From a virus, in the IMG/VR virus record IMGVR_UViG_3300027881_000014, positions 1 through 59,405 of that record: a stretch of 59,405 bases of DNA. One strand, given 5' to 3'. This document shows positions 1 through 27,132 of this stretch, piece after piece. Under the pieces are notes generated by a model. The model worked only from the letters and a program-made list of their open reading frames with translations, was not told the DNA's origin and did no database searches. Position numbers and translations under genes: made by a program. Within the stretch, counting starts at the first letter, position 1; each line of letters starts with the position of its first letter.

Positions 1-1764
1 TTCATCACGTGAACTAATACCAATTGAAATCCCGCTTTCTGTTACAAAGTCTTTAAAACCATTGATAAGTTGATAGTCACTAGGGAATTCCCAATAGTCT
101 ATTAAGAACCCTATATTAGCAGCTAGTAAATTTCCATCATAATCTTCTTGTGTAAATTCAAAATCTTCTACAGCTGATTCGGGACTAAGCAGATTAAACT
201 CCTTAACCATTTCATAATCAGCCTCATCTTTTATAGAATGGTAGAATCTTATTCTAGTAAGTCTCTTATTAATATCATGAGGTATTTTAATATTGTTAAT
301 CTTAATGCCATACTTATCTGTTGGCGTAACTTCATAATTATGTACGCTTGTTAAAATCTCTTCTCTTTCATCTAATACCATAGTAATAGCAATAGAAAAT
401 TTGTCATCGGTAGTTAACCAACCAATATCTCCTATTTCTAGATCACCACCATATTCAATACCAACTGCATACAAGTCAGCTATTGAAATAGAAAATGCTG
501 GGTCAGGCATATTTATTGTTGCATAACCTGAACCAGTAGGCCATTGTATCCACATCTTATCTGTGCCTGGAGTGGCCGCTACATAACTACCTACTGTGGA
601 CCATGCATTACCATTTGCTAATCTAAAAACTTCTCCCTGTTTACCAGTAAAATGTATATATGTATTAGCTAAATCTCCTGGTGCCAACGGTATGTCTCCT
701 GGTGGATTACCACCTGAGACACCTGTGCGAGTAGCATCAATAGTCCATAACCAAATATTAGGTATATCTGGATATGGCAGATCTGGATTATTTACACCTA
801 CTCCTGTATCTGTATCTGTAATATTAACTCTTAATGCTTTTACATTACCCAATGCTGGCTCCCACCTACCTAATTCATCAATAGGTGTACCAATAGTAAT
901 ATCTCTACCACCTACTACAGAAGTTTGATCTGTATTCAATTCGTAGTCATATATGATACCAAGACGCCTATCAAAAGCTTCATTACCTGTTACGCCGCCA
1001 TAAGCACGTGACGTGGCTAAAGTAGTATAACTTGGTAGATCAGGATAGGGAACTTGTGGTATGTTTAATGATCCATTAAAGTTAATAAATTGTTTGCTAT
1101 GATTCCATACATCTGTTATCCTATCTATATACCAATAATCACCTTCATAATCAAAATGAGTAGCAGAAGTGCTAACATCAGCAGTCCAAATTTTTCTATC
1201 AATCTTTCCCAACCAGAAAGTGTCGTGCGGGAAATAAAGTTTGAGTCTTCCATCTTCCACCTGAAAATGAACGGTGCCATCAATAGTGGTTGAAAAAAGA
1301 GAGTTGTCAAATGAGCTCCCATCATGATTATGAATATCAATAATACCCGCGCTATAGTTTCCATTTTTGGACATTTCATACCATATCGGCCCTCCTTCTG
1401 TAATGTCATATAAGTATACTAACCTATGATAAGTACCGCTGTCTGTTGCTTTTGCGATAAGTACCAAGACATCATGTTTGGAGGGAGTAGGATTATCCTG
1501 TGTAGTTAAGATATCAGAACTCAATGTTGTATAAATACCTGTTTCATACGTCCATGTATGAGCTGCAAAATCACCATTAGGATCTGGCAATCCAAAAGCA
1601 TTACCTGTATAAGGTAGTACGTCTGTCAAGTTTCTAGGATCTATCTCTAGATAACCTGGCCTATGTTTAAAATTCTTGCTATCTATTACTAATTCTAATT
1701 GATTATCATTTTCATCAGCATTAGAATAGATACCCTTAAAATCTTTTAATGTAATCTTTGGCAT
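1..1764 (-). CDS. Tail hub / stabilisation protein, N-terminal part (runs off left edge)
   Basis: The frame is open from an ATG at 1764 to base 1, giving 588 residues without a stop, and starts 1 nt after the stop of the upstream gene. The last visible residues (KDFVTESGISIGISS) recur at the right edge, where a C-terminal fragment of the same kind of protein begins. The right fragment has the feel of tail tubular protein B or P22 gp10-like hub proteins, with segments such as HGIYMTNGYKS. Its place after the tail tube gene fits that role. A combined protein would be near 760 residues, similar to T7 gp12. The function is inferred from position and fragment style; no catalytic motif is visible. 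Confidence 0.6.
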   Translation of the reverse strand, partial: MPKITLKDFKGIYSNADENDNQLELVIDSKNFKHRPGYLEIDPRNLTDVLPYTGNAFGLPDPNGDFAAHTWTYETGIYTTLSSDILTTQDNPTPSKHDVLVLIAKATDSGTYHRLVYLYDITEGGPIWYEMSKNGNYSAGIIDIHNHDGSSFDNSLFSTTIDGTVHFQVEDGRLKLYFPHDTFWLGKIDRKIWTADVSTSATHFDYEGDYWYIDRITDVWNHSKQFINFNGSLNIPQVPYPDLPSYTTLATSRAYGGVTGNEAFDRRLGIIYDYELNTDQTSVVGGRDITIGTPIDELGRWEPALGNVKALRVNITDTDTGVGVNNPDLPYPDIPNIWLWTIDATRTGVSGGNPPGDIPLAPGDLANTYIHFTGKQGEVFRLANGNAWSTVGSYVAATPGTDKMWIQWPTGSGYATINMPDPAFSISIADLYAVGIEYGGDLEIGDIGWLTTDDKFSIAITMVLDEREEILTSVHNYEVTPTDKYGIKINNIKIPHDINKRLTRIRFYHSIKDEADYEMVKEFNLLSPESAVEDFEFTQEDYDGNLLAANIGFLIDYWEFPSDYQLINGFKDFVTESGISIGISSRDE

Positions 1765-1765
1765 A

Positions 1766-2467
1766 TTAAACTGGGTACCATGGTGTTACTTCAATCCAGG
1801 GTCTTGAACGCTCTAAGTGACGTTCTTCAACCTCATCTCTTTTACGTGTATATACTTGTAATACTCTACCATACTTCTGAGCTTTTAATCCTTCGAATTG
1901 TGCAAGACCAAGTTTTGCCATATATCTGACAGCTTGTCGCACGGTTTCTTCAAAGTACTTGTTTGGGAGCACAGGTATTGCTTGGAGGTTTCCCTCATCA
2001 TCAAGCTCTTCATAATCTTCTTCACCTGCGATAGATGATGTATAGTAGATCGTAATCTCATCATCAAGCTCAGGGAAAGTATAATAAAGCTCACGCTGAT
2101 TAGCATTAAAAAGTATATGGTAAAAATAATTAGTGGATGCGGTAGAACTATTGGCATTATCTAAAACCTTTTCTAAACTTACTTCTTCATATAATGTCTC
2201 AGTCCCACCATCAGGTGTAACTGTGATTCTCCAAGCGCCATTAAAATTTAAGGGCTCAATAACTATTGGTGATGTACCAGTATCATCATTGGTAATGGTT
2301 ACACTACGTTCCATAACTCCATAGAGTTTAGCTATAGCCCTCTCGGCTCTATATACTGCTTGGGAGTATATATTACGAGGGAAGTCCTTAAACCAAGGAT
2401 CTCCGCATTTAAGTGCTACCTCTCCGATAGCTTCATTATTACTTATGTTTACAATTTGTGTGGGCAT
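1766..2467 (-). CDS. Tail tubular / head-tail adaptor-like protein
   Basis: This 233-residue protein starts with a helical segment (GDPWFKDFPRNIYSQAVYRA) followed by an ERAIAKLYG helix. That arrangement is reminiscent of tail tube A or P22 gp4-like adaptors in podovirus genomes. A beta-rich middle (about residues 55-150) and a C-terminal helical tail rich in Arg and Glu follow. Its ATG overlaps the stop of the upstream gene by one base (TAATG-type junction), so translation is probably coupled. It lies between the exported-protein cassette and the tail hub. The assignment rests on context and general resemblance, not on a decisive motif. Confidence 0.5.
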   Translation of the reverse strand: MPTQIVNISNNEAIGEVALKCGDPWFKDFPRNIYSQAVYRAERAIAKLYGVMERSVTITNDDTGTSPIVIEPLNFNGAWRITVTPDGGTETLYEEVSLEKVLDNANSSTASTNYFYHILFNANQRELYYTFPELDDEITIYYTSSIAGEEDYEELDDEGNLQAIPVLPNKYFEETVRQAVRYMAKLGLAQFEGLKAQKYGRVLQVYTRKRDEVEERHLERSRPWIEVTPWYPV

Positions 2468-3231
2468 TAGTCACCTACGGGTCTTAAATAGTTAAATTTT
2501 CCACCTATTATTCTAAGTAGACATTGTCTTGATGTTATAGGATCACCTATAGAACCGGTAGCAATACTAAATACTTTCATACCATCCCAACCCCATTGTA
2601 ATGGTGGAGATACAAAAGAAGCTTGTGTTTGTCCATTAATTTTTACAGGATCATTCCAAGAATAATCATATGTATAAAATGAGTCTATAACTACACCAAG
2701 TGAGTCATATAAATATCCAACTGTACTATCAACATTTACAGTACGTCTAAACCATTCATATGTTATAGTATTACCTGATACATTCCATTCAAATGTAACT
2801 GTAGAATCAATTTCCCCTATTAATTGTCGTGGTAAATTCCATTCTATGTAAGGTTCTTGATAGATATCATCTAACCAACCTACTTCACCCGTAATGACAA
2901 CCTTAGATTTTACATTTTCAGGTATAATCTGTGGAGCAAAATAGAGTTTGCTTCCTAGGCGTACATTAGCAAGCTCTGTCACCCAAGTTAATTGCTTTAA
3001 GCTATTATTCCAAGTATAACTGCCCATTGGTGCAAAGCTTAGATTTTCCCTACCATTGCCCATAATAAAACCAATATCATATTGTCCTGCACTAGGAGTT
3101 TCAACAAATGTTGCTCTACCCCATAATTCAAGAACATCAGCATTGGTATATTTAGCTGCAGCTGAGTCAAGTGAAACTTGAGGTAATGCTAATCCAGTAA
3201 GCAGCAAAAAACTTAATAGTATTTTCTTCAT
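2467..3231 (-). CDS. Putative exported virion-module protein 5 (254 aa)
   Basis: The N-terminus is a good Sec signal peptide: MKK, then a run of Leu/Phe/Ala/Gly, ending LALPQ with likely cleavage near residue 18. The mature part is beta-strand rich with many aromatic, Asn, Thr and Asp residues. It has one internal repeat-like segment with Val-Asp-Ser-Thr near residues 165-185 and no catalytic motif. It overlaps both neighbours by one base, so it belongs to the same translationally coupled string as the four signal-peptide proteins upstream. It could be a tail-fibre accessory, a receptor-binding subunit or a protein released outside the cell. I do not recognise a family. Confidence 0.6.
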   Translation of the reverse strand: MKKILLSFLLLTGLALPQVSLDSAAAKYTNADVLELWGRATFVETPSAGQYDIGFIMGNGRENLSFAPMGSYTWNNSLKQLTWVTELANVRLGSKLYFAPQIIPENVKSKVVITGEVGWLDDIYQEPYIEWNLPRQLIGEIDSTVTFEWNVSGNTITYEWFRRTVNVDSTVGYLYDSLGVVIDSFYTYDYSWNDPVKINGQTQASFVSPPLQWGWDGMKVFSIATGSIGDPITSRQCLLRIIGGKFNYLRPVGD

Positions 3232-5324
3232 TATTTATAGCCTCCTTTGGCTTTATATTGGTCATCTGCTTGTGTAGCATTAACTCCTGTTAAATCATTG
3301 TTAGTTGTTTCATCTCCTAAGAATAAAGCATTAGTATTCCCTTTCCACTTCCACCATCCAACAATAGTCCCACCTGTATAACTGCCAGTCATATTCTTGC
3401 CTTTAGTACCATTGTTATAATTAGTTAGTACATCACTATCACCAAATCCTGCATCTTCTATATTATCAAATCTTATAAATTGTAGCTCGCCTATTAAGCC
3501 ATTAAATTCACTCGCGTTGTTAAAAGCACCTATCTGTAACGGAGTTATTGAACTTCTTATTGTACCAATTTCAGTTATATCCCAACCATTCCCAGTTCTT
3601 GGGTATAAATCAAAATACATACTATCTGTTCTGTCAATAGACAGATAAAATAAATCCCATTGATTCAATACTGGGTCATTTGTACTTGATGGATTATAAG
3701 TAGTCCCATTTATAAAAGCTCGTAAATCGCCAGAGGCATAATAAAAATCCCACTGTGCGAGTTCACTAAGTGACCTATAAGAAAATAATCTATAAGTAGT
3801 TGCTACATTCGCAGGATTAAACCACCCTATTACAGCAAAATCATAAGCCTGACTCACATCCATATTGTCTATATATACTGTATCTGGTTGGTTGAGGTAC
3901 ATCTGTAAATCAGGTGTTGGGTTACCAGTAGTATCCCACTCAAAATTCCACACTAAGGTTTCAAATGCTGATGGGTCAACATCACTGAATGTTTTGCTAC
4001 TGTCTCCTACTACAAGTTCTAAGTCTGGGGGGGTTACTTGTTTGAGCGATACGTTATCAAACACTACCCCTGTAAGAGTGGCGTAGGGTCTTAGAAAAGT
4101 ACCAGCTGATTGAAATACGTGAGTATGAGTTCCATTGCTATAAAATGCAGTAGCTTGTCCAGCACTACCTTCATACCATCCCCCCTCTCCACCAACAAGA
4201 GTTAAATCAAAGGTAAGTTCATACCATAAATCTGCTGTCAGTATAGTTTGCTCAATAGTATTATTGCTATAAGCACCATCTTTTAGACTTTCAAATTCAC
4301 CACCTGTTCTATCCCAATAAGTAGTATCAGCACCTCCAACCCAAGCCCAACCTGTGTAGTCACTAAAGTCACCATTTGTAATTAACTCACTTCCCTTTAT
4401 TCCCTCACTATTAGCATCCATCTGCCAAGTATATTTCTTACCGTGTTCTAATGCTGTGAAATCAGCTGCTGGTAGTGAGGTGTAGTTGGTTGTTGCATCG
4501 CCCACTGGAGTTTTATATACAGAAACATCATCAAAATATAATATATCACCCTCTGCACCACCTTCTGTCCAAATTCCTATTAGTTTCCCCGAATTTGATT
4601 CGCAAACGTCGGTGAACGTAGCTTCAAACCACGAACCTTGGCCTTGCCCTGAATAATCTGCCGAATAACCAGTTATGCTGGTGCCATCATCATACATTAT
4701 CTGTACGGCTGTAAACGATTCTCCTGTTTCCAGATAAAGCTGTGCGGTTATCGTATAAGTTTCTCCTGGTATCATCTCTAATAGGTAGGCATCTAAAAGT
4801 CTCGCCGCAAGACGAGTTCCCACAACCGAACCAACAGTAATTTTACCAACTTTTTCTGCCCCTGGATTAGTACCATCATAAGTCACAGTACCATTTGAAC
4901 CACCACCAGTTAATACAACCCAATTACCGATATTACCACTTGAAAAATCTCTATCGTTTAGAGCAGCTATAGATTCAGTCGTATCACTAACAATCACCCC
5001 ACCATAACTACCACCATTGTTTGTAGATGAAGTATCTATAGTGTGGTTACCGTTGCCTGTCCAATTAGTTGTATCACCATCTTCAAAATCAGAATCTTTT
5101 CCGGAATCTGCAATACGTAAAGTATCATTTAAGTCTAAGTTTACTGGTGAACTGTTAGAAGCGTATTCATCTATGCCATTAAAGTCAATAGCCCATAGAT
5201 TTTTTTCTTGGCCACTATATATAGAACTACCAAATGTATGTATCCACCAATAATCACTTTCCCATGACTGTGCATTTGTAAGCCCAACTAAAAGTAGTGT
5301 GCTACATAATATTCTTTTAAACAT
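3231..5324 (-). CDS. Putative exported lectin-like protein with LamG-type domain (697 aa)
   Basis: A signal peptide (MFKRILCSTLLLVGLTNAQ) precedes a long beta-rich protein. Two segments of the form ITNGDFSDYTGWAW / DRDFSSGNIGNW (about residues 110-430) resemble carbohydrate-binding jelly rolls of the CBM4/9 kind. The C-terminal third (about residues 480-640) looks like a concanavalin/LamG fold, with AVIGWFNP, a FINGTTYN loop and a GLIGELQFIRF end strand. Such domains bind glycans, so a receptor-binding or surface-adhesion role is plausible. It sits between tail-connector genes. The presence of a signal peptide on a phage tail-module protein is unexpected. Domain names are by visual resemblance only. 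Confidence 0.6.
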   Translation of the reverse strand: MFKRILCSTLLLVGLTNAQSWESDYWWIHTFGSSIYSGQEKNLWAIDFNGIDEYASNSSPVNLDLNDTLRIADSGKDSDFEDGDTTNWTGNGNHTIDTSSTNNGGSYGGVIVSDTTESIAALNDRDFSSGNIGNWVVLTGGGSNGTVTYDGTNPGAEKVGKITVGSVVGTRLAARLLDAYLLEMIPGETYTITAQLYLETGESFTAVQIMYDDGTSITGYSADYSGQGQGSWFEATFTDVCESNSGKLIGIWTEGGAEGDILYFDDVSVYKTPVGDATTNYTSLPAADFTALEHGKKYTWQMDANSEGIKGSELITNGDFSDYTGWAWVGGADTTYWDRTGGEFESLKDGAYSNNTIEQTILTADLWYELTFDLTLVGGEGGWYEGSAGQATAFYSNGTHTHVFQSAGTFLRPYATLTGVVFDNVSLKQVTPPDLELVVGDSSKTFSDVDPSAFETLVWNFEWDTTGNPTPDLQMYLNQPDTVYIDNMDVSQAYDFAVIGWFNPANVATTYRLFSYRSLSELAQWDFYYASGDLRAFINGTTYNPSSTNDPVLNQWDLFYLSIDRTDSMYFDLYPRTGNGWDITEIGTIRSSITPLQIGAFNNASEFNGLIGELQFIRFDNIEDAGFGDSDVLTNYNNGTKGKNMTGSYTGGTIVGWWKWKGNTNALFLGDETTNNDLTGVNATQADDQYKAKGGYK

Positions 5325-5335
5325 AGGTGCTCCTA

Positions 5336-5770
5336 TTAGATATATCTACATTCTAGAACAAAGACTTTATCTGCAGCTTCTGCTGTTATGTCTCCTAATT
5401 TTAACCATACATAATCATTATTATTACTACCTGATTCACCTAGGATTGGCATAATAGTATTAGCATTAAGCGGTGCTATAGATGAATCCGCAATAGAAAC
5501 TGTATAATCAGTTGCTTCTCCAAGCTCTAAGATAGTCAGCCAGGTAGTGGGTGACCTATCATATGAAATCTTAATTGTAAAACTAGTTGCATTAGTAATA
5601 TCTAATGTATGTACTGCGACAGGTACCATACCACCTGGTATTCTTATAGAATCCGTAGATGTTTGGCCAGTTGTTAAAGTTAAAGTATATGAATTTGGTT
5701 CAGGTTGTGCATATGTCATGCCTATCATTAAACCTAATCCCAATAATAAACTAAAAAGTAATCGTTTCAT
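5336..5770 (-). CDS. Putative exported small beta-sandwich protein (144 aa)
   Basis: The N-terminus MKRLLFSLLLGLGLMIGMTYAQ is a clear signal peptide with a probable TYA/Q cleavage site. The mature domain of about 120 residues is all-beta in character (SYTLTLTTGQTSTDSIRIP, then alternating hydrophobic strands), with no Cys pair except one near the C-terminus and no catalytic motif. It is the third member of the five-gene exported cassette and lies only 5 bases downstream of the preceding gene. It could be a small capping or decoration protein of the structure built by the larger neighbours. Family not recognised. Confidence 0.55.
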   Translation of the reverse strand: MKRLLFSLLLGLGLMIGMTYAQPEPNSYTLTLTTGQTSTDSIRIPGGMVPVAVHTLDITNATSFTIKISYDRSPTTWLTILELGEATDYTVSIADSSIAPLNANTIMPILGESGSNNNDYVWLKLGDITAEAADKVFVLECRYI

Positions 5771-5775
5771 TTTGT

Positions 5776-7887
5776 TTAATCCTTGTTAATTTTCGGATGT
5801 ATCCCTCTAAAATAATTACGAGTCATTGTAAAGCTGAGGGTAGTGCTATACACGTCTTCTGCTAAGTTATTATTATCAGGAGCAGGCTCCCATGATGTTA
5901 CATAGTACATGCTCTGTTGTCTACCTTCGTCTCCTACCATTATCTTGGCTATGAAACCTAAACTATCGGCATAATCTTTCATGGTGGTTAAATCTGAAGT
6001 AACATAATAGCTATTACCTACGTTACTATCTGCTCTTGCGATGACTACATCTATTGGAAAATGTAATATAGCCAATCTATGATCAGCTTGATCTTGTGAC
6101 ATAGAAACAGTAGTAGTGCCTGTTCTATCTGTATAATTCATTATTGTGTCATATACAGCCGTATTAGTTGCTCTACCCATGACATAAAAATTTGTACCAT
6201 CTGTCAAGAATGAGTACCACCAACCATTATATAATAATGAATCATTATGAGCACTAGTTGCATCTGCTCTTGTTATTACTAAAGAATCATCTCCGGCTGA
6301 ATTAAGTATAACAATTTGATATTGTGATTGTATAGGATATTGTATCGTCTCTGTCGTAACACATTGTCGTCTATCAAATGTTAATGTATTAAATTGATTG
6401 CTATATGCTATAGTCCAACTATTGGTATCAGTTATTGCAATCTCATGCCAATATAATCTATGTGTTACATTAGACCATCCGCATGATGGATCATAATAAC
6501 TAAATGCATTTACAATACCATCAGAAGGACTTAAATCAACCGTACCAGATGCACAGTCAGATACTAAATAACTTCCTGTTACATTCATACAGAATAGACT
6601 ACCTAATTTGTTTAGTCCTTCACCTTCATTAACTAAATCTTGAGTTGATGAGGTATCTCTGCTTTCCTCTGCTTTAATCCAGAATGTAGGACCACCTGTA
6701 ATCGTAGTAGACCCAATACTCCAAACATAAAGAGTGCTATCCCAGAGAGCACTATTAACAGTGTCGACCACATTGTTAAGTTCAATAGTATGCCAAATAA
6801 GACTATCATTACTCCAAAATAAATCGAATGAAGTGACGTACTGCGAGCGGACCGAAATTGAATCGACTCCTCCGGATTCGGTAAAAGTTGTTGTTTCGGG
6901 TGAGACATCATAAACCTCTATATCAGAAAATGGATTAATAGTAAAATCATTAGCACTTGAATCAGCCCAATAAGTAGGACTATCGCCGAGCACCCTAATC
7001 TTTCCCGTTGTGATCTGATGTCGTGGGACCGTCCAAGAGACGCTAGTATCAGCCACGGCAACAGTATCAAAATCGCTCCAATCTGTCCCGCTATTTGTGC
7101 TAAATGCCAAATACGTGTTATCAATTGCTGTATCACTTGGTGCCGTCCAATGTATTGTTATTACTGAATCTTCTCTAAAAACTAAACCAGCTGCATCTGG
7201 ATAATTTAGTATGATATTATCCCACTGATTAATGGGATTATATTGGATCCACAGACTATCAGCTCCAGTAGGTGTTCCAGCTGTTGCATTAAATGCTCCA
7301 GCAAATGTTCCTACTTTCCATTGTATAGCACCATAATCCCAGTATTGTGTAGTGCCTAATTGCATCCAATCACCACTATTCCAATAATAAAATTTAATAC
7401 TATCTGTACTGCTACTATATGTTACTCTAAAATAATCTTTAGCATCTACTGCTAAACCTGTATCAAATAGGTATTTAAATTCACCATCTACAGTAGAATC
7501 TCGTACCATTAAAGAAACTTTAGTTAATTGGTATACATTACATATGCCAATGCCAAGATATTCATTAGTACTACTCCATATACCAAGCATAGGACTTAGA
7601 TTACCAAAATCAGTATCTTTCCACAGATAACCTCTTACATCAAAATCAGAATTAGTCGTTGATAATGAATCAGCATAGTATTGATAATAGCCATAATTTA
7701 CTTGTAATGTAGCACCAGTAGCCTGTAAATAACCATCTGTAATAATATCTGTAGTATCCCATTCTACTCCTGCATTTTGATGAGTCCAACCTGCGCTATA
7801 TCCAGCTGTAAATTCTTCTGTTAGAGTAATTTGAGCAAGTAATGAACTAGTGGCTAATGTTAATAATATTAATAATTTTTTTACCAT
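5776..7887 (-). CDS. Putative exported multidomain protein with LamG-like and FN3/Ig-like domains (703 aa)
   Basis: A signal peptide (MVKKLLILLTLATSSLLAQ) leads into a LamG-like domain at about residues 22-215 (EEFTAGYSAGWTHQN, then regular strands). This is followed by an FN3/Ig-like domain near 235-330 (VITIHWTAPSDTAIDNTYL, then VSWTVPRHQITTGKIRV). A long Asp/Thr/Ser-rich beta region with a few Cys fills the C-terminal half. This architecture is typical of secreted adhesins and of phage receptor-binding proteins. It overlaps the start region of the upstream gene by 7 bases. No enzyme motif was seen. Binding of host surface glycans is an inference. Confidence 0.6.
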   Translation of the reverse strand: MVKKLLILLTLATSSLLAQITLTEEFTAGYSAGWTHQNAGVEWDTTDIITDGYLQATGATLQVNYGYYQYYADSLSTTNSDFDVRGYLWKDTDFGNLSPMLGIWSSTNEYLGIGICNVYQLTKVSLMVRDSTVDGEFKYLFDTGLAVDAKDYFRVTYSSSTDSIKFYYWNSGDWMQLGTTQYWDYGAIQWKVGTFAGAFNATAGTPTGADSLWIQYNPINQWDNIILNYPDAAGLVFREDSVITIHWTAPSDTAIDNTYLAFSTNSGTDWSDFDTVAVADTSVSWTVPRHQITTGKIRVLGDSPTYWADSSANDFTINPFSDIEVYDVSPETTTFTESGGVDSISVRSQYVTSFDLFWSNDSLIWHTIELNNVVDTVNSALWDSTLYVWSIGSTTITGGPTFWIKAEESRDTSSTQDLVNEGEGLNKLGSLFCMNVTGSYLVSDCASGTVDLSPSDGIVNAFSYYDPSCGWSNVTHRLYWHEIAITDTNSWTIAYSNQFNTLTFDRRQCVTTETIQYPIQSQYQIVILNSAGDDSLVITRADATSAHNDSLLYNGWWYSFLTDGTNFYVMGRATNTAVYDTIMNYTDRTGTTTVSMSQDQADHRLAILHFPIDVVIARADSNVGNSYYVTSDLTTMKDYADSLGFIAKIMVGDEGRQQSMYYVTSWEPAPDNNNLAEDVYSTTLSFTMTRNYFRGIHPKINKD

Positions 7888-9233
7888 AGTCGTCTAACTG
7901 TTATATTACCTGTTAATACAGTTATATCATTGCTATTAACATCATTCATAGCTCGTAGTGATATCCAATCGTCAGCAGTTGCATATACAATACATGTTCC
8001 TGCCACAACACCAGCATCAGTACCAGACATACCTCTTTCAGTTTGTCCATACTCTTGCTTAACATTTTCTAAAAAGATAGCCGTATACCAAACATCAGTA
8101 TTGGCACCTATAAAGCTTAATGAATAATCAATTTTATAATAACCCGCTGTTTCACATTGGATAGAATCTCCATCGAACACTAAATCTCCTGTATCAAATG
8201 CATCATTCCATAAACTATTGGTAGTATTGGTAATAGGAGACCATACATTAACTGCAGCAGCTATGACTTCAGCAGAATCAGCAAAATATTGCCCTCCCCA
8301 AACTAAGCGTATACTATCTTTTACAGCTTGGGCTAAGTTAATCCATGTTTGATTTTGCATACTATCTCTTACCGTTGAGTTGAGGTTCCACCATGTGATA
8401 AGGCTGTCATTACGGAGACCACCGTCGTCTGTACTAATAAGTAAAAACTCGCTACTATCACCAGCAGCACCGCTACCAGAATAGTAAGGCTTATTTGTAG
8501 CGCTCCAAAACACACGCGAAACACCCGTGTCATTATTACCATCAGGAATTCTAAGAGATCCTGTAACATTATTATCTCCACTAAATGTATTATCACCTGA
8601 TAATGTATTGTCTTCAGCTAAGTAAACTGTTAATGTAGTATCAGGTCTATCATGATCTAATAATGAGTTAATACTTGCTGTTCGTAGTTTAAGGGTATCA
8701 TTTTCTATATACAAATATGTTGAATCTGTGTATACAATGAGTTCCCATAGTTTAAGATCTATAGAATCTTGGTTCAATGATATTCTAGTATAAAAACTAG
8801 TTAAATTAGATTGAGTCCATTTCCATAAATCATAATGAGTTGTTAATCCATCTGGAGGTGTAAGAGATGTAACTCCGCCTCCACTTCCTCCTGTACCAAA
8901 TCCACCCCATTTGATCTTGCCTTCTGCTACATAATGATTATTGATACTATCTATCATAGATAAACCTTCATTATATACAGAGTCCCAATCAGCTACTTGA
9001 AGAGAATCACTTAACAACCAGAATACATAGGGATTATCAGATGTAGCTAATGCTTTAACATCGTTTAATATAGCGTTAAGGTGTTTAAAGTAGGGTCTCT
9101 TATTGTTCAAACCTCCGGCTAGGTACCTTACATTAGTAGGATACTTGCCAAAAAATTGAGCAGTAGTTTCTGTAGGAAGAGCAAAGAGTATAAGGGCAGC
9201 AAATATTGCGTACTTAAGTTTCTTTAGTATCAT
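7881..9233 (-). CDS. Putative tail fibre with C-terminal C1q/TNF-like head and N-terminal signal peptide (450 aa)
   Basis: The N-terminus has a basic start (MILKKLKYA), a hydrophobic core and a TTAQ end, giving an apparent signal peptide of about 26 residues. A helical region (about 30-105) and a Gly-rich hinge (GFGTGGSGGG) follow. The middle contains repeats rich in Asp/Asn (DNTLSGDNTFSGDNNVTG), as in trimeric fibre shafts. The last 130 residues resemble a C1q/TNF jelly-roll head (YYKIDYSLSF, then WISLRAMND and a final strand), common in phage receptor-binding tips. The gene overlaps the connector gene upstream by 20 bases. A fibre role is likely; the signal peptide is the odd feature. Confidence 0.65.
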   Translation of the reverse strand: MILKKLKYAIFAALILFALPTETTAQFFGKYPTNVRYLAGGLNNKRPYFKHLNAILNDVKALATSDNPYVFWLLSDSLQVADWDSVYNEGLSMIDSINNHYVAEGKIKWGGFGTGGSGGGVTSLTPPDGLTTHYDLWKWTQSNLTSFYTRISLNQDSIDLKLWELIVYTDSTYLYIENDTLKLRTASINSLLDHDRPDTTLTVYLAEDNTLSGDNTFSGDNNVTGSLRIPDGNNDTGVSRVFWSATNKPYYSGSGAAGDSSEFLLISTDDGGLRNDSLITWWNLNSTVRDSMQNQTWINLAQAVKDSIRLVWGGQYFADSAEVIAAAVNVWSPITNTTNSLWNDAFDTGDLVFDGDSIQCETAGYYKIDYSLSFIGANTDVWYTAIFLENVKQEYGQTERGMSGTDAGVVAGTCIVYATADDWISLRAMNDVNSNDITVLTGNITVRRLW

Positions 9234-9915
9234 CTGTTTGTTCCATTTTATTACTAAAACCTGCTAATAACTGTAGTTGCTCATTGACATCTTGCTTATA
9301 AGCGCCAGCTACATCACCTTGTCCTATATCAATATAGGCTTCAACGCATGCTAATGATAGTAACAAATCTAGATACTCAGTAGATATGTCTAAATCTACG
9401 GCTCCGCCTTGTCCTCCATCCTCTATATCTTGAGCCTTATCTGAACGATAAGTCAATTCATATTGTAGAGTAACAGCTGGTAAAAAATAAATGTCATTGG
9501 ATCTACGGGTCCAGTAAAACATGTCGGTATTTAAGTTACCGGCATAAAATGGATTCTCCTCGTGTTTTACCTTGAGGTAATCTTCGGGAGAAATGAAGTT
9601 AGCACGAACGTAATCTTCATCACCTGGTTCTCTAACAAATGCTTCATGAATTTCAGACCAATTGATAGCGGGAGAAACCACGCCACCACCAGTTGATGTA
9701 CCTGATAGTTCTTGAAAGAAGTCTTGAAAAATCTTTTGTGACAAGTTAGGATATAGCACAGCCACCATACGTAAGAGCCGCCTGTAAGATCTGATAATAT
9801 ATCTTAATCTCTCAGCGGCGCTTAAACGTACACCGTTACCGGTCCCCGCCGAAACGGGGTCCTGTAACTTATAGGCTAAGTCTTTACTAACTTGATTTAG
9901 TATAGGTGTAGCCAT
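9214..9915 (-). CDS. Head-tail connector/adaptor protein
   Basis: This 233-residue protein has an N-terminal helical signature (VRLSAAERLRYIIRSYRRLL) like head-tail connector proteins that dock beneath the portal in podoviruses. An acidic loop and a strand-rich middle (FYWTRRSNDIYFLPAV, then LQYELTYRSD) follow. A C-terminal helical pair with Gln-rich end completes the protein. Its position right after capsid and decoration genes and before the fibre cassette supports a connector role. The final 20 bases overlap the start of the fibre gene. The assignment is by general family resemblance and order. Confidence 0.55.
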   Translation of the reverse strand: MATPILNQVSKDLAYKLQDPVSAGTGNGVRLSAAERLRYIIRSYRRLLRMVAVLYPNLSQKIFQDFFQELSGTSTGGGVVSPAINWSEIHEAFVREPGDEDYVRANFISPEDYLKVKHEENPFYAGNLNTDMFYWTRRSNDIYFLPAVTLQYELTYRSDKAQDIEDGGQGGAVDLDISTEYLDLLLSLACVEAYIDIGQGDVAGAYKQDVNEQLQLLAGFSNKMEQTDDTKET

Positions 9916-9924
9916 ATTCTTCCT

Positions 9925-10269
9925 TTATTGTACCGGTGTTTCTGTTAAGTCATCTGTTACGGTATTAGCAGCTACAGTTTCAGTAACTGAAGCCAATATA
10001 ATATAACTGAATTTATTAGATGCACCAGCTGATGTAGCTGTAAAAGTTACCGTGGCAACATTATTACTGACAGAACTTGCAATTGCTATTAACTCGGCAT
10101 CAGTATCAGCAGTGGAACTAGCCACAACTGAGATGATAGTTTTAGCAGGGAAAGATACTGTAAGTACTTTTGTTGCTGTAAGGGTAACTGTATCTGCAAC
10201 CAGGATTAAACCTGGAAAAATTGCAGGATTTACAGGCACATCCATTACTTTACTTCGTCTGTTAGCCAT
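9925..10269 (-). CDS. Small structural protein, possibly capsid decoration
   Basis: A 114-residue Ala/Thr/Val-rich protein with alternating strands and no Cys or charged catalytic cluster. After about 20 N-terminal residues the sequence reads as a compact immunoglobulin-like or decoration-type beta domain (VTLTATKVLTVSFPAKTI, then VATVTFTATSAG). It lies between two structural genes with short gaps of 9 and 15 bases, which points to the virion. Capsid decoration or a small connector part are the simplest readings. No family was recognised. Confidence 0.45.
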   Translation of the reverse strand: MANRRSKVMDVPVNPAIFPGLILVADTVTLTATKVLTVSFPAKTIISVVASSTADTDAELIAIASSVSNNVATVTFTATSAGASNKFSYIILASVTETVAANTVTDDLTETPVQ

Positions 10270-13187: not shown

Positions 13188-15188
13188 TTAACCTTGTTTG
13201 TTTTGTTGTTTACGCTTGGCTTCTGCATCTGATTTATCTTTGATCTGGGCTTTCGCCAATTCATCAGCCAATTTCAGTTTCGTCTCGAGTTCTGCAAACT
13301 TCTCACCAATCATTTGCTCTTTACTAGTCATCTCTTTGAGAATCCTATTTTCTAACGAGATGTTAATGAATTTATTTTCCATCTGTTTACTCGTTTCTAA
13401 GAGCCTATCATATGCAGCTTGCTGATCTTGAAGCTTTTGTTCAGCTCTTTTAACAGTATCAAGCTTCTGCATTAGTTCATCCCATTCCCTAACATCACTT
13501 AATTCCATTGCTTTCTGGGTTAAGATTTGTCTCTCTGAAGGATCAGGAGATGATTGTGCAATTTTTGCTAACTCTGTAGCTATAGCCAATCTTTGTGTTG
13601 GCATAGCAGTAGACGGTACACTCACTGTTAAAAACTTCATCGTTTTGATGTCGTTTGCAACGTCAAGCGCAATCTGCAACTCATTCAATTCGCCATTTTC
13701 ATCGAAGAATGAGAAACTATCAGGTGTCAAATGGGCTGCCATATACTCTATCATTACCTGTCCAAGTTCTTTCATTACTTGATTGATATGAGCTGATGAC
13801 ATTTTTACTCTCATCATAGCAGCACTTTGGTATTGCTGAAGGGAACTGAAGACTTCTACTCCGGCATCTTTAGCATTACCTTGTAGTATTGCATTGACTC
13901 CTGTAGAATACTCGATTCCTTGTTTCAGCATCTCTAATACGTTCGGATAGAAATTACTAAGTTTAGCAATACTATCACGCTCAGGCTTAAGAACTTGATT
14001 CTCATATACCTTTGGAACATATTCCTTTATAACTTTGGGGTTTGCTCCAAATTGTTCCCATTTCTCCCTATCTTCTTCTGCGATTGATCCCTTAGGAGCA
14101 TTCCAACCTGCATTATTAGATAGGATTCCATTAAGAATCATTATCTGCAAGACTTTATCAAAAGCCTGTTGCATACCCTTGGTGAAATGGATCATACCAT
14201 AACTACGATATGCTCTTCCACCCCATTCAAAAAAGGCCGTTCTTAACGGATAATCAGTTATAGGTAAGATCTCTTCCCATATAGTCCAATCACCCATTGC
14301 AATGGTCTTTTTTATGTAAATATCAGGAAGAACCTTATCAGCATTAGCTGTTATGGCCTCTCCCTCTAGCCCCAGATTTTCTTTAAAGAGCATCTGAACT
14401 AGTCCATTTTCCTTGACTAAATACATATCAGTAAAAACTTTTTCATAGTATTCACGAACGATAATTCTATCGTCAGCATTCCAATGAGAAGTAGTCACAT
14501 CTTGTTTTTCAGTAAGTTCTTGTTCAACCCATGTTTGCCCAGTAAGGCCCTTGATGTCAACCGGTGTACCATTATCATTTTTAAGTTGCGAGATGATACC
14601 ACCATAGACTTGTAGTGCCTTGGGTATAGTAAATGCTTTTTCAATAAAGAATCCCTCCATATCTTCAAGCGTTTTACTTTTAGCGTTAATATCAAGAATA
14701 ACTTCATCAAAGGGTACATGTGCAACCCGAAGGTTAAACATACCCTGTCTGTAGAAATCAACAGGTGAAACCATAATATGGCCCATTCCTGTTATTAGCA
14801 TTTCCTTGATCATTGATTCGATTTCTACAGAGGCATTAGAATTATACATAATTCCATGCTTCATTTTATCAAGTACAAATGCATGTTGCTTAGCCCTACC
14901 ATCTAAAGACAATGTCTTTACGGAGGGTTTGGTCTGGGTTAAGAGTGCTAATTTCTGGTTGGTAACGGGGTGCAGAAAGTTAATAGATACAGGAATATTT
15001 GTATTATCTGTTATCTTAGAAACTTGAGTGGAGGTATAAGTCGTACCGGTCTGATCTACATCGTTATAGTAGTATTCTTCTGACTCTTCTGCACGAGTGA
15101 GCCATTGTTTTCTACCCCAGGTTGTATCAGACTTCCAACTCACATACCTTTCACGAATGCGCTCAGGCACTCTCTGAAAGTTTATCAT
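13188..15188 (-). CDS. Portal protein
   Basis: A 666-residue protein, first gene of the head module. It opens with RVPERIRERYVSWKSDT and WLTRAEESEEYYYNDVDQTG, like portals of podoviruses of the P22 and crAss-like type. The central part has the expected wing/stem character (QKLALLTQTKPSVKTLSLDG; IKEMLITGMGHIMVSPVDF). The final 120 residues form a long charged coiled coil (EQKLQDQQAAYDRLLETSKQ to the Lys-rich end), a barrel-like extension. A consensus promoter and a terminator lie just upstream, so head gene transcription probably starts here. Identity is inferred from order, size and style. Confidence 0.75.
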   Translation of the reverse strand: MINFQRVPERIRERYVSWKSDTTWGRKQWLTRAEESEEYYYNDVDQTGTTYTSTQVSKITDNTNIPVSINFLHPVTNQKLALLTQTKPSVKTLSLDGRAKQHAFVLDKMKHGIMYNSNASVEIESMIKEMLITGMGHIMVSPVDFYRQGMFNLRVAHVPFDEVILDINAKSKTLEDMEGFFIEKAFTIPKALQVYGGIISQLKNDNGTPVDIKGLTGQTWVEQELTEKQDVTTSHWNADDRIIVREYYEKVFTDMYLVKENGLVQMLFKENLGLEGEAITANADKVLPDIYIKKTIAMGDWTIWEEILPITDYPLRTAFFEWGGRAYRSYGMIHFTKGMQQAFDKVLQIMILNGILSNNAGWNAPKGSIAEEDREKWEQFGANPKVIKEYVPKVYENQVLKPERDSIAKLSNFYPNVLEMLKQGIEYSTGVNAILQGNAKDAGVEVFSSLQQYQSAAMMRVKMSSAHINQVMKELGQVMIEYMAAHLTPDSFSFFDENGELNELQIALDVANDIKTMKFLTVSVPSTAMPTQRLAIATELAKIAQSSPDPSERQILTQKAMELSDVREWDELMQKLDTVKRAEQKLQDQQAAYDRLLETSKQMENKFINISLENRILKEMTSKEQMIGEKFAELETKLKLADELAKAQIKDKSDAEAKRKQQNKQG

Positions 15189-23921: not shown

Positions 23922-24410
23922 TTACGCAATTATAATCTTTATTTCACGATTTTTATTACGTGTTGGATATGAGCGTTTATAACTACGAACGTTAACTGTA
24001 TCACCATACACCTGGGCATTACCTAATACGTTAACTGGAGTAGCTGTACTCAGCTCTTTAACTGTGTCAACAAGCTCTTGTATTGTTTGGATAAACAACT
24101 CATGAGCGTTGTCGCGCTGCATCTTGCCAACGAAACGTGTGACATCAGGCTTAAAATCATTAGTTTTGTCACTACCACGCAAGAAAATGGTATTTTTGGA
24201 AATTTTAAATTCCGGTTTAGCTGACAATTCAACCTTGAATCCAGTTGAAGGAGACAAGAAAGTATTGTTAGCAAGGAAAGCAGTAACATCAGGAGACTGG
24301 TCTAAGACCTGAAACACTAATGCATTAGTATGCTTATCCAACTTGTAGCTTACCTTCGTTTGAAAGATAGGCATATAGCCACATAGATACTGCACATTGT
24401 TGTAGAACAT
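23922..24410 (-). CDS. Unknown protein, paralogue of the next gene downstream (162 aa)
   Basis: It shares the IFLRG-centred block and N-terminal strand pattern with its downstream neighbour. The start at 24410 has a good ribosome site (GAAAGGA about 7 bases upstream), preferred over the internal ATG at 24374. The C-terminus is Val/Asn-rich and then very basic (RSYKRSYPTRNKNREIK). It lies just downstream of the RNA/tRNA region. Unknown family. Confidence 0.5.
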   Translation of the reverse strand: MFYNNVQYLCGYMPIFQTKVSYKLDKHTNALVFQVLDQSPDVTAFLANNTFLSPSTGFKVELSAKPEFKISKNTIFLRGSDKTNDFKPDVTRFVGKMQRDNAHELFIQTIQELVDTVKELSTATPVNVLGNAQVYGDTVNVRSYKRSYPTRNKNREIKIIIA

Positions 24411-24439
24411 ATAGTATCCTTTCTATTAGTTGATGATTA

Positions 24440-25110
24440 TTTAATGAACCTCACACTATCTAAGGTGGGATTCCTTGGTGATAATGTTTGATTGTGCCTT
24501 ACGGCATAAAAATTTCTCTCCTGAATGCCTTTCCTTCTGACTAGACATCTACCCGCATGCTTTCATACTAAGGATATATAGCAGTGTCGACCACACTCGC
24601 TTTGCCTTCCGGCTACTGGTTTACGGCCAGATTTTGGTTCGTTCGTATTACGCTAATGAATAGCACCGAACAGGCGTGAGATACACCATAAACGGAGTGT
24701 GCAAAGTAACTACGTTACCTGCACATTAAAAACATTGCACCTCACCTGAAATCAATCAAGAATATTGGTGCAAAGTTGAGGACAACAATAAGTACTCCAC
24801 AGATGACTCGAACATCCAACCTCAGCATCCGTAATGCTGCGCTCTATCCAATTGAGCTAATGGAGCATAAATCCGTTCACTTAACCGAGGAACGGCCAAT
24901 CTCGTTGTTATATAAATATGGTCATTCTCGAAATATGTATAAATACATTGGGCCTAGAATACGCACAGTAAAAGGTTTTGGACGTCTTAAACCATGTCCC
25001 TCCGTGATGCTTCGTTAGTTACCTTCTGGGCTTCCAACCTTGTAAACTGCGGTTCATTTAACACGGGACCTGAACCAAAGTCCGATATGAGTTAAACCAT
25101 TCACGGTGAA
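24440..25110 (-). ncRNA. Candidate large structured RNA C surrounding a tRNA gene
   Basis: About 670 bases with no gene other than a tRNA. The minus strand contains many perfect stems: TGTGCA...TGCACA enclosing GTAAC-GTA-GTTAC (24698-24725); GCC-GGAA-GGC (24604-24613); TGCC-GTAA-GGCA (24495-24506), both GNRA-capped; AGTGT...ACACT (24583-24597); and CCGTTC...GAACGG (24873-24895), only 7 bases from the tRNA 5' end. GGTTCA...TGAACC lies further upstream. The density of GNRA hairpins suggests a folded RNA rather than random spacer. Whether it is one transcript including the tRNA, or several RNAs, cannot be told. Confidence 0.55.
24793..24866 (-). tRNA. tRNA-Arg (ACG anticodon)
   Basis: A full cloverleaf is visible on the minus strand: acceptor GCTCCAT with GTGGAGT (two G-U pairs), D-arm GCTC...GAGC, anticodon stem CAGCA/TGCTG with loop TTACGGA, five-base variable loop, and T-arm GATG-TTCGAGT-CATC. 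The discriminator is A, and CCA is not encoded. It reads CGU and related Arg codons. Confidence 0.9.
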
Positions 25111-25113
25111 ACC

Positions 25114-25527
25114 CTAATCCTCATCTAATTTCCACTGAAACCACAGGCTGCTGTCTGAAAATCCCAGGAATACTGCGTGGATAAGTTCACTTACAGTTTG
25201 ATTAATTGCGCGACTCAGGCTGAGTTTCTCTTCCTCAGACCTACAGAGTATAGCGACTTGTGAATAACAGTCTTTCGACGTAGTGCTGTAAAAGCCTGAT
25301 AGGTATCCCTTGATGGGTGCCTCTCTTACAGTCGTATATGTAAAACAATCCATTGGAACGACTCGCATTCCGTTAGATGCCTCGAAAAATACCTGTTCCT
25401 TCAAGAAATCTCCGATTTCCTTACAGAAATGAGTAATTTGAAGGCTTAAAACCAGGGGTGTTGTCATGTCAATGTACATTGTGAGTGCATAATCCGAGGT
25501 ATGAATCATTTTCTTTTGTTTTTTCAT
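25114..25527 (-). CDS. Unknown small protein (137 aa)
   Basis: A 137-residue protein with a good ribosome site (GAGGAAAAC before the ATG). The pattern of N-terminal strands, a SNGMRV turn and a C-terminal Ser/Leu-rich helix (SLSRAINQTVSELIHAV) faintly recalls the two paralogues at 23.4-24.4 kb, but there is no shared IFLRG block. A possible promoter (TTGTGA...GATAAT) lies 40-60 bases upstream. It is separated from the paralogues by the structured RNA region. Unknown function. Confidence 0.5.
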   Translation of the reverse strand: MKKQKKMIHTSDYALTMYIDMTTPLVLSLQITHFCKEIGDFLKEQVFFEASNGMRVVPMDCFTYTTVREAPIKGYLSGFYSTTSKDCYSQVAILCRSEEEKLSLSRAINQTVSELIHAVFLGFSDSSLWFQWKLDED

Positions 25528-25605
25528 GTTTTCCTCTTGACTTTTGATGAAAAATGTATTATCTTACCAGCGAACCTCGCGTCACAAAAGACGTGTAGTT
25601 AATCT

Positions 25606-25806
25606 TTAAGGTCCTCTTAGCATTCCATACATTATCTGTTCTGTTGTATCTATTATCCAAGGCAAAACCTTGCCAATAGCTACAAATACAGATATTATGA
25701 TAGGTTCTGGTTTGACATAAGGACTGTTTGAGAATGGCGCAGGTGTTATCCACATCCAATATACCCAAATCAGAAATGATGCAATCCAGTATTTGATTAA
25801 GTTCAT
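25606..25806 (-). CDS. Small membrane protein, first gene of the leftward block (66 aa)
   Basis: The ATG at 25806 is preceded by AAAGGAGA at proper spacing, so I prefer it to an upstream ATG at 25854. The product begins MNLIKYWIASFLIWVYWMWI, a membrane segment or signal anchor. A second hydrophobic stretch (PIIISVFVAIGKVLPWII) follows. It is the first gene leftward from the divergent control region and lies 41 bases after a motif copy shared with the rightward genes. Function unknown; early membrane effectors are common in this position. Confidence 0.5.
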   Translation of the reverse strand: MNLIKYWIASFLIWVYWMWITPAPFSNSPYVKPEPIIISVFVAIGKVLPWIIDTTEQIMYGMLRGP

Positions 25807-25846
25807 ATTTGATTTTTCTCCTTTACTTAAAAATTTGAAAAAATAA

Positions 25847-25869
25847 GCGAACAATAGTAATAAGTACTT
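25847..25869 (-). promoter_or_regulatory. CTTATTACTA motif, copy 1 (leftward)
   Basis: Minus strand reads AAGTACTTATTACTATTG and continues TTCGC. It sits about 40 bases before the first leftward gene. The shared core with three plus-strand copies suggests a phage promoter or operator. Confidence 0.5.
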
Positions 25870-26201
25870 AGCTTTCTTACCATCCTTTCATCCCTTAACA
25901 GACTTTGAAAAAAATTGGGCGCAAATGTATGCCGTCTATTTGTTTAAGAGTATCCTGCCGTACAACCTTCAACCCCCCCTATCGTTTGATCCTTAGGTTA
26001 TGCCTATCATTGGTAAGCACATTCTATCGTAATGCTTGTAGATATCACATACTATAGGCATATGTAGTATACACCATACATTATACAGCATACTCTATTA
26101 CTTATCACACACACACACGTGGGGATGATATCAATTGAATATAAAGCACACAGTACACTTGCACATCCATTACAGGTAGAGCGTATGATATGTTATGTTA
26201 T

Positions 26202-26220
26202 GCGCTTATTACTACTAATT
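26202..26220 (+). promoter_or_regulatory. CTTATTACTA motif, copy 2 (rightward)
   Basis: Plus strand GCGCTTATTACTACTAATT, about 47 bases before the first rightward gene. Upstream bases TTATG are also found before copy 3. Confidence 0.5.
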
Positions 26221-26231
26221 AGTGGTAATAA
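26206..26231. repeat. Near-perfect 26-bp palindrome
   Basis: TTATTAC and GTAATAA flank ACTAATTAGT, itself a perfect palindrome; only the base pair at position 8 (T opposite G) breaks the symmetry. It overlaps motif copy 2. This is the expected form of a dimeric repressor operator, or a hairpin promoter. Confidence 0.55.
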
Positions 26232-26266
26232 ACCATATCATTAATAACCTTACATCGGAGTACATT

Positions 26267-26560
26267 ATGAAATCATTACCAACCATCATAGCTGAATCAG
26301 TCAACAGCTTCCACGGACCTCAACCAATAGAAGACTCACAGTATAATTACTTTCTATCCAGCCTGCTCTATAAACTCATACAACCTATGTTGCAAGATGA
26401 GAAAGCTAATTATACTGAATACGATGAGGACATACATCAAACATCACGACATTATCACTACTGGGACAACGGTGTAATGATAGTGGAAACTGATACTGAT
26501 GTCATAGTATGGACAGAGGTATTCATCAATGGTGTTTGTATCCTAAGGTTTGATGACTGA
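26267..26560 (+). CDS. First rightward early protein (97 aa)
   Basis: The ATG at 26267 has a GGAG site 8 bases upstream and is preferred over the ATG at 26222. The product is acidic (many Asp/Glu), His/Tyr-rich in the middle (DIHQTSRHYHYWDNG), with beta strands at the end (TDVIVWTEVFINGVCIL). Leading position after the control region marks it as an early protein, possibly a host-takeover effector. Family not recognised. Confidence 0.5.
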   Translation: MKSLPTIIAESVNSFHGPQPIEDSQYNYFLSSLLYKLIQPMLQDEKANYTEYDEDIHQTSRHYHYWDNGVMIVETDTDVIVWTEVFINGVCILRFDD

Positions 26561-26588
26561 TAGAAACACAATTGATGATAAACCATCA

Positions 26589-26629
26589 GAGTGCATCGTT
26601 ACCATTCAAACACAGCTTGGGTTGCACTC
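26589..26629 (+). promoter_or_regulatory. Stem-loop leader 1 (GAGTGCA...TGCACTC)
   Basis: A perfect 7-bp stem GAGTGCA (26589-26595) with TGCACTC (26623-26629), followed by ACTAA, lies 43 bases before a small gene. It matches leader 2 in layout but with compensated stem bases. Confidence 0.5.
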
Positions 26630-26671
26630 ACTAACCACATTAATCAATCACTAATCATAAGAGGTAATACA

Positions 26672-26770
26672 ATGATAGTATTAGAGGCTATCTTCTGCAT
26701 CGTTGTCTTCTTAGTAGTATTTCGTTGGTTTAAAAAGACAGATGATAAATACACATCAAACACTAAGTAA
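26672..26770 (+). CDS. Small single-pass membrane protein (32 aa)
   Basis: The start has an AGAGGT ribosome site. The product begins MIVLEAIFCIVVFLVVFRWF, a membrane span, followed by a polar Lys/Asp tail. It begins a string of four tiny genes. Such small membrane proteins are typical early phage products. Function unknown. Confidence 0.45.
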   Translation: MIVLEAIFCIVVFLVVFRWFKKTDDKYTSNTK

Positions 26771-26779
26771 GGAATAATA

Positions 26780-26860
26780 ATGAGACACATCTTATCAGGG
26801 TTAGGTATGGCATTAACAATCACATTAATCATAATCACAATCATAGGAGTATTAATATGA
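26780..26860 (+). CDS. Small membrane peptide (26 aa)
   Basis: Almost entirely hydrophobic after residue 9 (ALTITLIIITIIGVLI). It follows an AAGGAATAATA leader at good spacing and ends in an ATGA overlap with the next small gene. Probably a membrane-inserted peptide. Confidence 0.4.
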   Translation: MRHILSGLGMALTITLIIITIIGVLI

Positions 26861-26925
26861 GTAGATACGGTTGGAACAACAGAATGAAGACAAGGCGCTT
26901 CAAAGGTTACATATGGATGTATTAA
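26857..26925 (+). CDS. Very small basic peptide (22 aa)
   Basis: Starts in the ATGA overlap with the previous gene. It is rich in Arg/Lys and aromatic residues (GWNNRMKTRRFKGYIWMY). It overlaps the next small gene by 13 bases. Support is the tight coupling only. Confidence 0.3.
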   Translation: MSRYGWNNRMKTRRFKGYIWMY

Positions 26926-27011
26926 GCCTTCACATTAGCAAACTATCATACATTTTAATAGTAGTGATGATAGGTCTTTGGTACATTAGATTTGTTGTCA
27001 AACGATTCTAA
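26913..27011 (+). CDS. Small single-pass membrane protein (32 aa)
   Basis: The product has a central span (LSYILIVVMIGLWYI) and a basic C-terminus (RFVVKRF), predicting a cytoplasmic tail. Its start lies within the end of the preceding peptide gene, which suggests coupling. Function unknown. Confidence 0.4.
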   Translation: MDVLSLHISKLSYILIVVMIGLWYIRFVVKRF

Positions 27012-27017
27012 GTTATG

Positions 27018-27034
27018 TCACTTATTACTATTAC
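27018..27034 (+). promoter_or_regulatory. CTTATTACTA motif, copy 3
   Basis: TCACTTATTACTATTAC preceded by GTTATG. It lies about 100 bases before the gene at 27133 and just before stem-loop leader 2. Confidence 0.5.
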
Positions 27035-27061
27035 TAACGTTGTTTACTCCGATTAACAACA

Positions 27062-27099
27062 GAGTACGTGTCCTTTGAAACTCAATTAGGAGCGTACTC
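27062..27099 (+). promoter_or_regulatory. Stem-loop leader 2 (GAGTACG...CGTACTC)
   Basis: A perfect 7-bp stem GAGTACG (27062-27068) with CGTACTC (27093-27099), followed by ACTAA. The stem differs from leader 1 at paired positions on both sides, so pairing is preserved. It lies 34 bases before the next gene. Confidence 0.5.
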
Positions 27100-27132
27100 A
27101 CTAATTCATTAACTAATCAAGAAAGGCGTACT

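What the first reader, a model, noticed from the sequence alone, without database searches (positions are those of the whole stretch)
2467..9233. Five consecutive signal-peptide proteins inside the tail module
Genes at 2467, 3231, 5336, 5776 and 7881 each begin with a Sec signal peptide and contain lectin/LamG, FN3 or C1q-like domains. Phage tail parts are normally assembled in the cytoplasm. These may be exported to the cell surface, for example for superinfection exclusion or adhesion, or the virion may gain them at the envelope.
Basis: partly seen in the sequence, partly recalled or inferred. Interest (0 to 1): 0.85.

Follow-up and report, generated by a model that had tools for sequence, protein, structure and literature searches.

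The report
Phage tail-fibre genes with export signals
This bacterial virus carries five neighbouring tail-region genes whose proteins each begin with a cell-export signal, and two of them form a gene pair found with export signals in unrelated phages, which suggests that some phages send parts of their host-binding gear out of the cytoplasm instead of building it all inside.

Summary
The core observation holds. Five consecutive minus-strand genes (2467-9233), inside a podovirus-type structural operon, start with Sec/SPI-type signal peptides; among about 50 window genes a rule-based scan calls only these and one obvious false positive. Four of the five put Gln at +1, the 'Bacteroidetes Q-rule'; the 2467 gene does not have a clean site. 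Two of the five form a cassette: gene A (7881-9233; tail-fibre-like, C-terminal C1q/TNF head) directly followed by gene B (5776-7887; swappable N-terminal domain, conserved C-terminus ending YFRGIHPKI). The pair recurs, always with signal peptides and +1 Gln, in three further phage types: close podovirus relatives, a different podovirus-like phage, and a 129-133 kb phage with a baseplate-J gene. Each carries it at a tail locus. Distant relatives with the same capsid/neck genes lack it, and eight cultured Bacteroidota phages sampled show no signal peptide on a recognisable tail fibre. No lipobox or type IX secretion sorting domain was found, so surface display is not supported. Best reading: exported adhesins or tail fibres that wait in the periplasm and join virions at lysis. 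Export is well supported by sequence; the joining step is inference. No protein data exist and the host is unknown.

The parts
7881..9233 (-). Gene A (450 aa): signal peptide plus tail-fibre-like protein with C1q/TNF-type C-terminal head
9159..9233 (-). Signal peptide of gene A: MILKKLKYAIFAALILFALPTETTA, Gln at +1
   Evidence: Ala -1 and Gln +1 invariant in the 44%-identical homologues
8685..8783 (-). Core motif of gene A (DSIDLKLWELIVYTDSTYLYIENDTLKL) shared with the short A proteins of the other phages
   Evidence: E 3e-6; E 2e-8
7884..8273 (-). C1q/TNF-like C-terminal domain of gene A
   Evidence: local pLDDT mostly about 60-80; Foldseek: C1q/TNF domains and phage receptor-binding proteins
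5776..7887 (-). Gene B (703 aa): signal peptide, variable N-terminal domain, conserved C-terminal region
   Evidence: 29% identity over about 530 aa to the G008 protein, E 1e-34
7834..7887 (-). Signal peptide of gene B: MVKKLLILLTLATSSLLA, Gln at +1
5788..5814 (-). C-terminal motif YFRGIHPKI of gene B
   Evidence: identical in all four phage types
5336..5770 (-). 144-aa signal-peptide protein (MKRLLFSLLLGLGLMIGMTYA|Q), no homologue found
3231..5324 (-). 697-aa signal-peptide protein (MFKRILCSTLLLVGLTNA|Q), possible carbohydrate-binding domain below cut-off
2467..3231 (-). 254-aa protein with signal-peptide-like N-terminus and no clean Q-rule site
9214..9915 (-). Upstream flank: neck adaptor 1 (SU10 adaptor-like, below cut-off); homologues in G001 and G004
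1766..2467 (-). Downstream flank: adaptor 2 / tail-tubular-like; homologue directly follows adaptor 1 in G001 and L005
10911..12266 (-). Major capsid protein (SU10_MCP), same operon
13188..15188 (-). Portal protein (P22_portal), same operon

Best explanation
The five genes encode secretory preproteins expressed with the structural operon. The host Sec translocon exports them and signal peptidase I removes the leader; in four of five this exposes Gln, which a Q-rule host would cyclise to pyroglutamate and so stabilise. With no lipid anchor and no type IX sorting domain found, the mature adhesin-like proteins should collect in the periplasm. Gene A is a tail-fibre or receptor-binding protein with a C1q/TNF head; gene B has a swappable N-terminal domain and a conserved C-terminal region that is probably the docking part. 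When the envelope breaks at lysis, virions made in the cytoplasm meet the folded fibres and bind them, so adsorption parts are added outside the cytoplasm. Shown by sequence: signal peptides and their recurrence, tail-fibre homology of A, the conserved A-B pair. Inferred: actual export and cleavage, Gln cyclisation, periplasmic location, docking to virions at lysis, and that the other three proteins act the same way.
For: Signal peptides on all five and on essentially no other window gene. Gln at +1 in 11 of 12 distinct signal peptides of the window and related loci (counting them as independent, chance 3e-11 at a 9% background; they are partly homologous, but 5 of 6 families obey). Q-rule and stabilisation by cyclisation: PMC5837995, PMC10653852. 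Between window and L023 homologues of A (44% identical) most of the leader differs, yet Ala -1 and Gln +1 are kept. Tail-fibre identity of A: Pfam BppL_N above cut-off in the L023 homologue, tblastn to annotated tail fibres (3e-22), C1q/TNF fold shared with phage receptor-binding proteins. The two such tail fibres checked, in Roseobacter phage CRP-6 and Pseudomonas phage Rollin, have no signal peptide. A directly precedes B in four phage types: between adaptors (window, G005/G006), after the long tail gene (G008), beside baseplate genes (G007/G009). G001, with the same portal/capsid/adaptor genes, has the two adaptors adjacent and no signal-peptide tail gene; a fibre-like gene lies further on without one. 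I see no other fibre gene in the window.
Against: No protein-level evidence of export, cleavage or presence in virions. Attachment of fibres outside the cytoplasm is, to my knowledge, not established for any tailed phage. Host unknown, so a Q-rule host is inferred from the sites themselves. Gene 2467 lacks a clean site. Only A and B have traceable relatives with signal peptides; the unrelated L011 signal-peptide gene is cut by a contig end. The window record is broken in the tail-tubular gene, so a conventional fibre gene in the gap cannot be ruled out.
Confidence: 0.5

Rival explanations
1. The proteins are exported but are not virion parts. They act in the periplasm or on the surface as receptor-masking or exclusion factors, stopping superinfection or loss of progeny to cell debris.
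For: Signal peptides real; adhesin-like domains could bind the phage's own receptor; P. gingivalis Nixviridae phages carry five Q-rule genes of unknown function that the authors suggest may modify the envelope (PMC10367356).
Against: No lipobox and no type IX sorting domain found; no defence-family match; genes sit inside the structural operon and at tail loci in four phage types; A resembles virion fibres.
Confidence: 0.28
2. The N-terminal segments look like signal peptides but are not used for export. The proteins are assembled in the cytoplasm as ordinary fibres and the hydrophobic tip helps docking or meets the membrane during infection.
For: Tail fibres are normally assembled in the cytoplasm; gene 2467 has no clean cleavage site.
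Against: Textbook n/h/c regions with -3/-1 and +1 Gln in 11 of 12 cases; the cleavage junction is kept while most of the leader diverges; the two homologous fibres checked in other phages lack the segment.
Confidence: 0.12
3. The genes are recently captured host adhesins whose signal peptides are leftovers without function for the phage.
For: Low Lys+Glu, high Ser/Thr/Asn and Trp/Tyr content typical of secreted proteins; weak matches to surface-type domains (GLUG, CBM, Big) below cut-off.
Against: The A-B pair is shared by divergent phages (B about 16-30% identical) and every signal peptide is intact; A's homologues include annotated phage tail fibres.
Confidence: 0.07

Closest known systems
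Q-rule signal-peptide genes of Porphyromonas gingivalis Nixviridae phages (PMC10367356)
   Same: Phage-encoded proteins with Sec signal peptides that expose Gln at +1
   Different: There of unknown function and suggested to alter the envelope; here in the tail operon, with tail-fibre homology and a gene pair shared across phages (their genomes were not compared here)
Phage tail fibres and receptor-binding proteins with C1q/TNF heads (e.g. lactococcal phage 1358 RBP, cyanophage A-1(L) short tail fibre, Roseobacter phage CRP-6 tail fibre)
   Same: Fold of the C-terminal domain, BppL_N-type motif in the close homologue, position among tail genes
   Different: The two homologous fibres checked have no signal peptide; fibres are normally assembled in the cytoplasm
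Bacteroidetes Q-rule Sec/SPI substrates (PMC5837995)
   Same: Signal peptide architecture and Gln at the mature N-terminus
   Different: Encoded by phage structural operons; pyroglutamate not shown
Phage superinfection-exclusion envelope proteins (e.g. T5 Llp, from memory)
   Same: Phage-encoded exported proteins
   Different: No lipobox, five mostly large proteins, located among tail genes

Membership tests
Sec/SPI substrate following the Bacteroidetes Q-rule | Positively charged n-region, hydrophobic h-region, -3/-1 small residues | tested here: met
   all five called; the site is ambiguous in 2467
Sec/SPI substrate following the Bacteroidetes Q-rule | Gln at +1 of the cleavage site | tested here: met
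   4 of 5 in the window, 11 of 12 overall; not met by gene 2467
Sec/SPI substrate following the Bacteroidetes Q-rule | Cyclised N-terminal Gln in the mature protein | not testable with these tools
   Needs mass spectrometry
Phage tail fibre / receptor-binding protein (gene A) | Homology or fold shared with known fibres | tested here: met
   (both for the L023 homologue)
Phage tail fibre / receptor-binding protein (gene A) | Encoded in the structural/tail operon | tested here: met
Phage tail fibre / receptor-binding protein (gene A) | Present in the virion and binds the host | not testable with these tools
   No isolate or proteome
Lipoprotein-type superinfection exclusion protein | Lipobox Cys at +1 | tested here: not met
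   no lipobox in the five
Lipoprotein-type superinfection exclusion protein | Blocks the phage's own receptor | not testable with these tools
   Needs infection assays
Type IX secretion cargo | C-terminal sorting domain (Por_Secre_tail / TIGR04183) | tested here: not met
   no match; atypical sorting domains could be missed
Known anti-phage defence protein | Match to a PADLOC model | tested here: not met

The most novel reading that the evidence does not exclude
Some tailed phages have an extracytoplasmic branch of virion assembly: receptor-binding parts are exported through Sec, trimmed, modified and folded in the periplasm, and only added to virions at lysis; the A-B pair is a mobile cassette for this, shared by short-tailed and baseplate-bearing phages.
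Probability: 0.38. Interest if true: 0.92.

Novelty: new variant of a known kind. Interest (0 to 1): 0.68.

Why it matters
Tailed phages are taught as building their tails in the cytoplasm. If fibre-like proteins carry working host-tuned signal peptides, either virion assembly has a step outside the cytoplasm or phages deploy their own adhesins in the envelope of infected cells. The Gln-first signature is a host marker that could link uncultured phages to Q-rule hosts, and it predicts a specific mass (pyroglutamate N-termini) that one virion proteomics run could test.

Tried and rejected
Close homologues of the window's portal, gene B and the 3231 and 5336 genes in the 50,697 phage records: none. 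Close relatives of adaptor 2 and gene B in viral contigs by single-sequence search: none; the profile and the YFRGIHPKI DNA pattern worked. Structure of gene B: model useless (mean pLDDT 29), so no fold claim is made. N-terminal 300 residues of gene A: low confidence. Sequence matches of two of the proteins to solved structures: none. YFRGIHPKI pattern in 45 genomes of the phylum of the MAG holding the distant relative: none, so no host assignment. Wrong start codons: unlikely, because the start of A overlaps the adaptor's stop and the start of B overlaps A's stop in both window and L023. Leaders copied from one another by recent duplication: weak DNA similarity only. Export as a general habit of Bacteroidota phages: cultured phages scanned in whole or nearly so (B124-14, phi38:1, P2559Y, RAP44, 11b, FCL-2, P12024L) or in part (crAss001, and RM378 of Rhodothermus); signal peptides or lipoboxes fell on small, lysis-type or non-tail genes, plus one RAP44 lipoprotein with an Ig domain annotated as structural.

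Full report
What is there. The window is an IMG/VR virus record of 59,405 bases. Its minus strand carries a podovirus-type structural operon: P22-like portal, scaffold-like gene, SU10-like major capsid protein, two small conserved proteins (10285, 9925), adaptor 1 (9214-9915), the five genes of the finding, adaptor 2 (1766-2467), a long tail-tubular-type gene broken by the record ends, internal-virion-type proteins including a 4349-residue giant, then the lysis genes and terminase.

The signal peptides. A rule-based scan of about 50 window genes called all five, and otherwise only 9925-10269, which is not a signal peptide on inspection. It called 3 of 127 non-gene ORFs. Four have an Ala at -1 and Gln at +1. 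Gene 2467 has a good n- and h-region but Pro before its Gln, so its site is uncertain. None has a lipobox. The mature proteins are acidic, poor in Lys and Glu and rich in Ser/Thr/Asn and Trp/Tyr. SignalP was not available. Gln at +1 is the Bacteroidetes Q-rule: most SPI substrates there expose Gln, which is cyclised and stabilises the protein; most Chlorobi and other outgroups do not follow it, while a few other species, such as Ignavibacterium album, do (PMC5837995, PMC10653852). That the phage leaders follow it is the strongest sign that they are used by a host export pathway.

Relatives. Portal, capsid and small-protein searches gave related viral contigs. In G005/G006 (capsid 67% identical) adaptor 1 is followed by a homologue of 7881-9233 (gene A, 49% identical over residues 2-329) and a homologue of 5776-7887 (gene B), both with signal peptides ending FA|Q. 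Between window and relative most of the leader of A differs while Ala -1 and Gln +1 are kept. In G002 (L011/L018) an unrelated gene with leader ...VSYG|Q follows the 9925 homologue. By contrast G001 (58 kb, portal 43% identical) and the contig in a Goldbacteria-labelled MAG (L005) have adaptor 1 and adaptor 2 side by side, G001 has no signal-peptide gene in the tail region, and neither has a B homologue.

A conserved pair. The C-terminal motif YFRGIHPKI of gene B, searched as a DNA pattern, found three further viral contigs of two further phage types. G008 (52 kb) has a podovirus-like gene order and carries A (173-aa ORF, leader ...IETYG|Q) and B (leader ...SSITFG|Q) after its long tail gene. 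G007/G009 (129-133 kb) carry A (157 aa) and B (940 aa) directly after baseplate genes; one of these matches Baseplate_J at 1.4e-16. B of the window and of G008 align over about 530 residues (E 1e-34) with different N-terminal parts; the short A proteins share with gene A the core around LIVYTD...NDTLK (E 2e-8 and 3e-6). In every case A immediately precedes B and all leaders give Gln at +1. Counting distinct signal peptides in the window and related loci, 11 of 12 obey the Q-rule (the 12 are not all independent; by family, 5 of 6).

Function. The L023 homologue of A matches Pfam BppL_N above its cut-off and annotated tail fibres by tblastn (best 3e-22); two of these fibres, in CRP-6 and Rollin, start without a signal peptide. 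The C-terminal 130 residues of window A were modelled with moderate confidence and match C1q/TNF domains and phage receptor-binding proteins. B gave no usable model. No sorting domain for type IX secretion was found, so after Sec the proteins should stay in the periplasm. I see no other recognisable fibre gene in the window. Together these favour fibre or adhesin proteins that are exported and meet the virions at lysis. That last step is inference; exclusion or receptor masking remains a serious rival.

How unusual. Among the cultured Bacteroidota phages scanned in whole or part, no recognisable tail fibre or tailspike carried a Sec/SPI signal peptide, including the tailspike-type genes of crAss001; two carried Q-rule leaders on small genes outside the tail module (FCL-2, phi38:1), and RAP44 has one lipoprotein annotated as structural with an Ig domain. 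P. gingivalis Nixviridae phages were reported with five Q-rule genes of unknown function (PMC10367356), so exported Q-rule phage proteins are known; their placement in a tail operon with fibre homology, and a shared two-gene cassette, I did not find described in the open-access papers searched.

Limits. All evidence is sequence and one partial model. The host is unknown. Genes 2467, 3231 and 5336 have no traceable relatives, so the case for them rests on position and leader alone. Absence of the cassette from a virus record may reflect an incomplete record.

Noticed in passing
window 1-1763 and 58828-59405: The tail-tubular-type gene is cut by the record ends; both ends carry imperfect copies of a repeat (KDFVTESGISIGISS(R/K)DE) and the frames do not join, so the assembly probably broke in a repeat.
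   Followed up: partly
window 43211-56260: Single ORF of 4349 residues in the internal-virion-protein position.
   Followed up: no
window 24792-24866: A tRNA-Arg (acg) gene near the switch between the two transcription directions.
   Followed up: no
L005 (CALHNI010000033.1): Distant relative of this phage on a contig binned in a Goldbacteria MAG; may hint at a host or be a binning artefact.
   Followed up: partly
G009 24002-28020 and 56741-69193: Tandem series of related leucine-rich-like small genes and a cluster of glycosyltransferase-like genes in the 133 kb contig (read by eye, not tested).
   Followed up: no
L052 45363-45806 (FCL-2) and L046 31090-31383 (phi38:1): Small Q-rule signal-peptide genes of cultured Bacteroidota phages lying outside the tail modules.
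   Followed up: no
L049 12853-13545 (RAP44): Lipoprotein-type signal on a gene annotated 'structural protein with Ig domain', on the opposite strand within the tail region.
   Followed up: no
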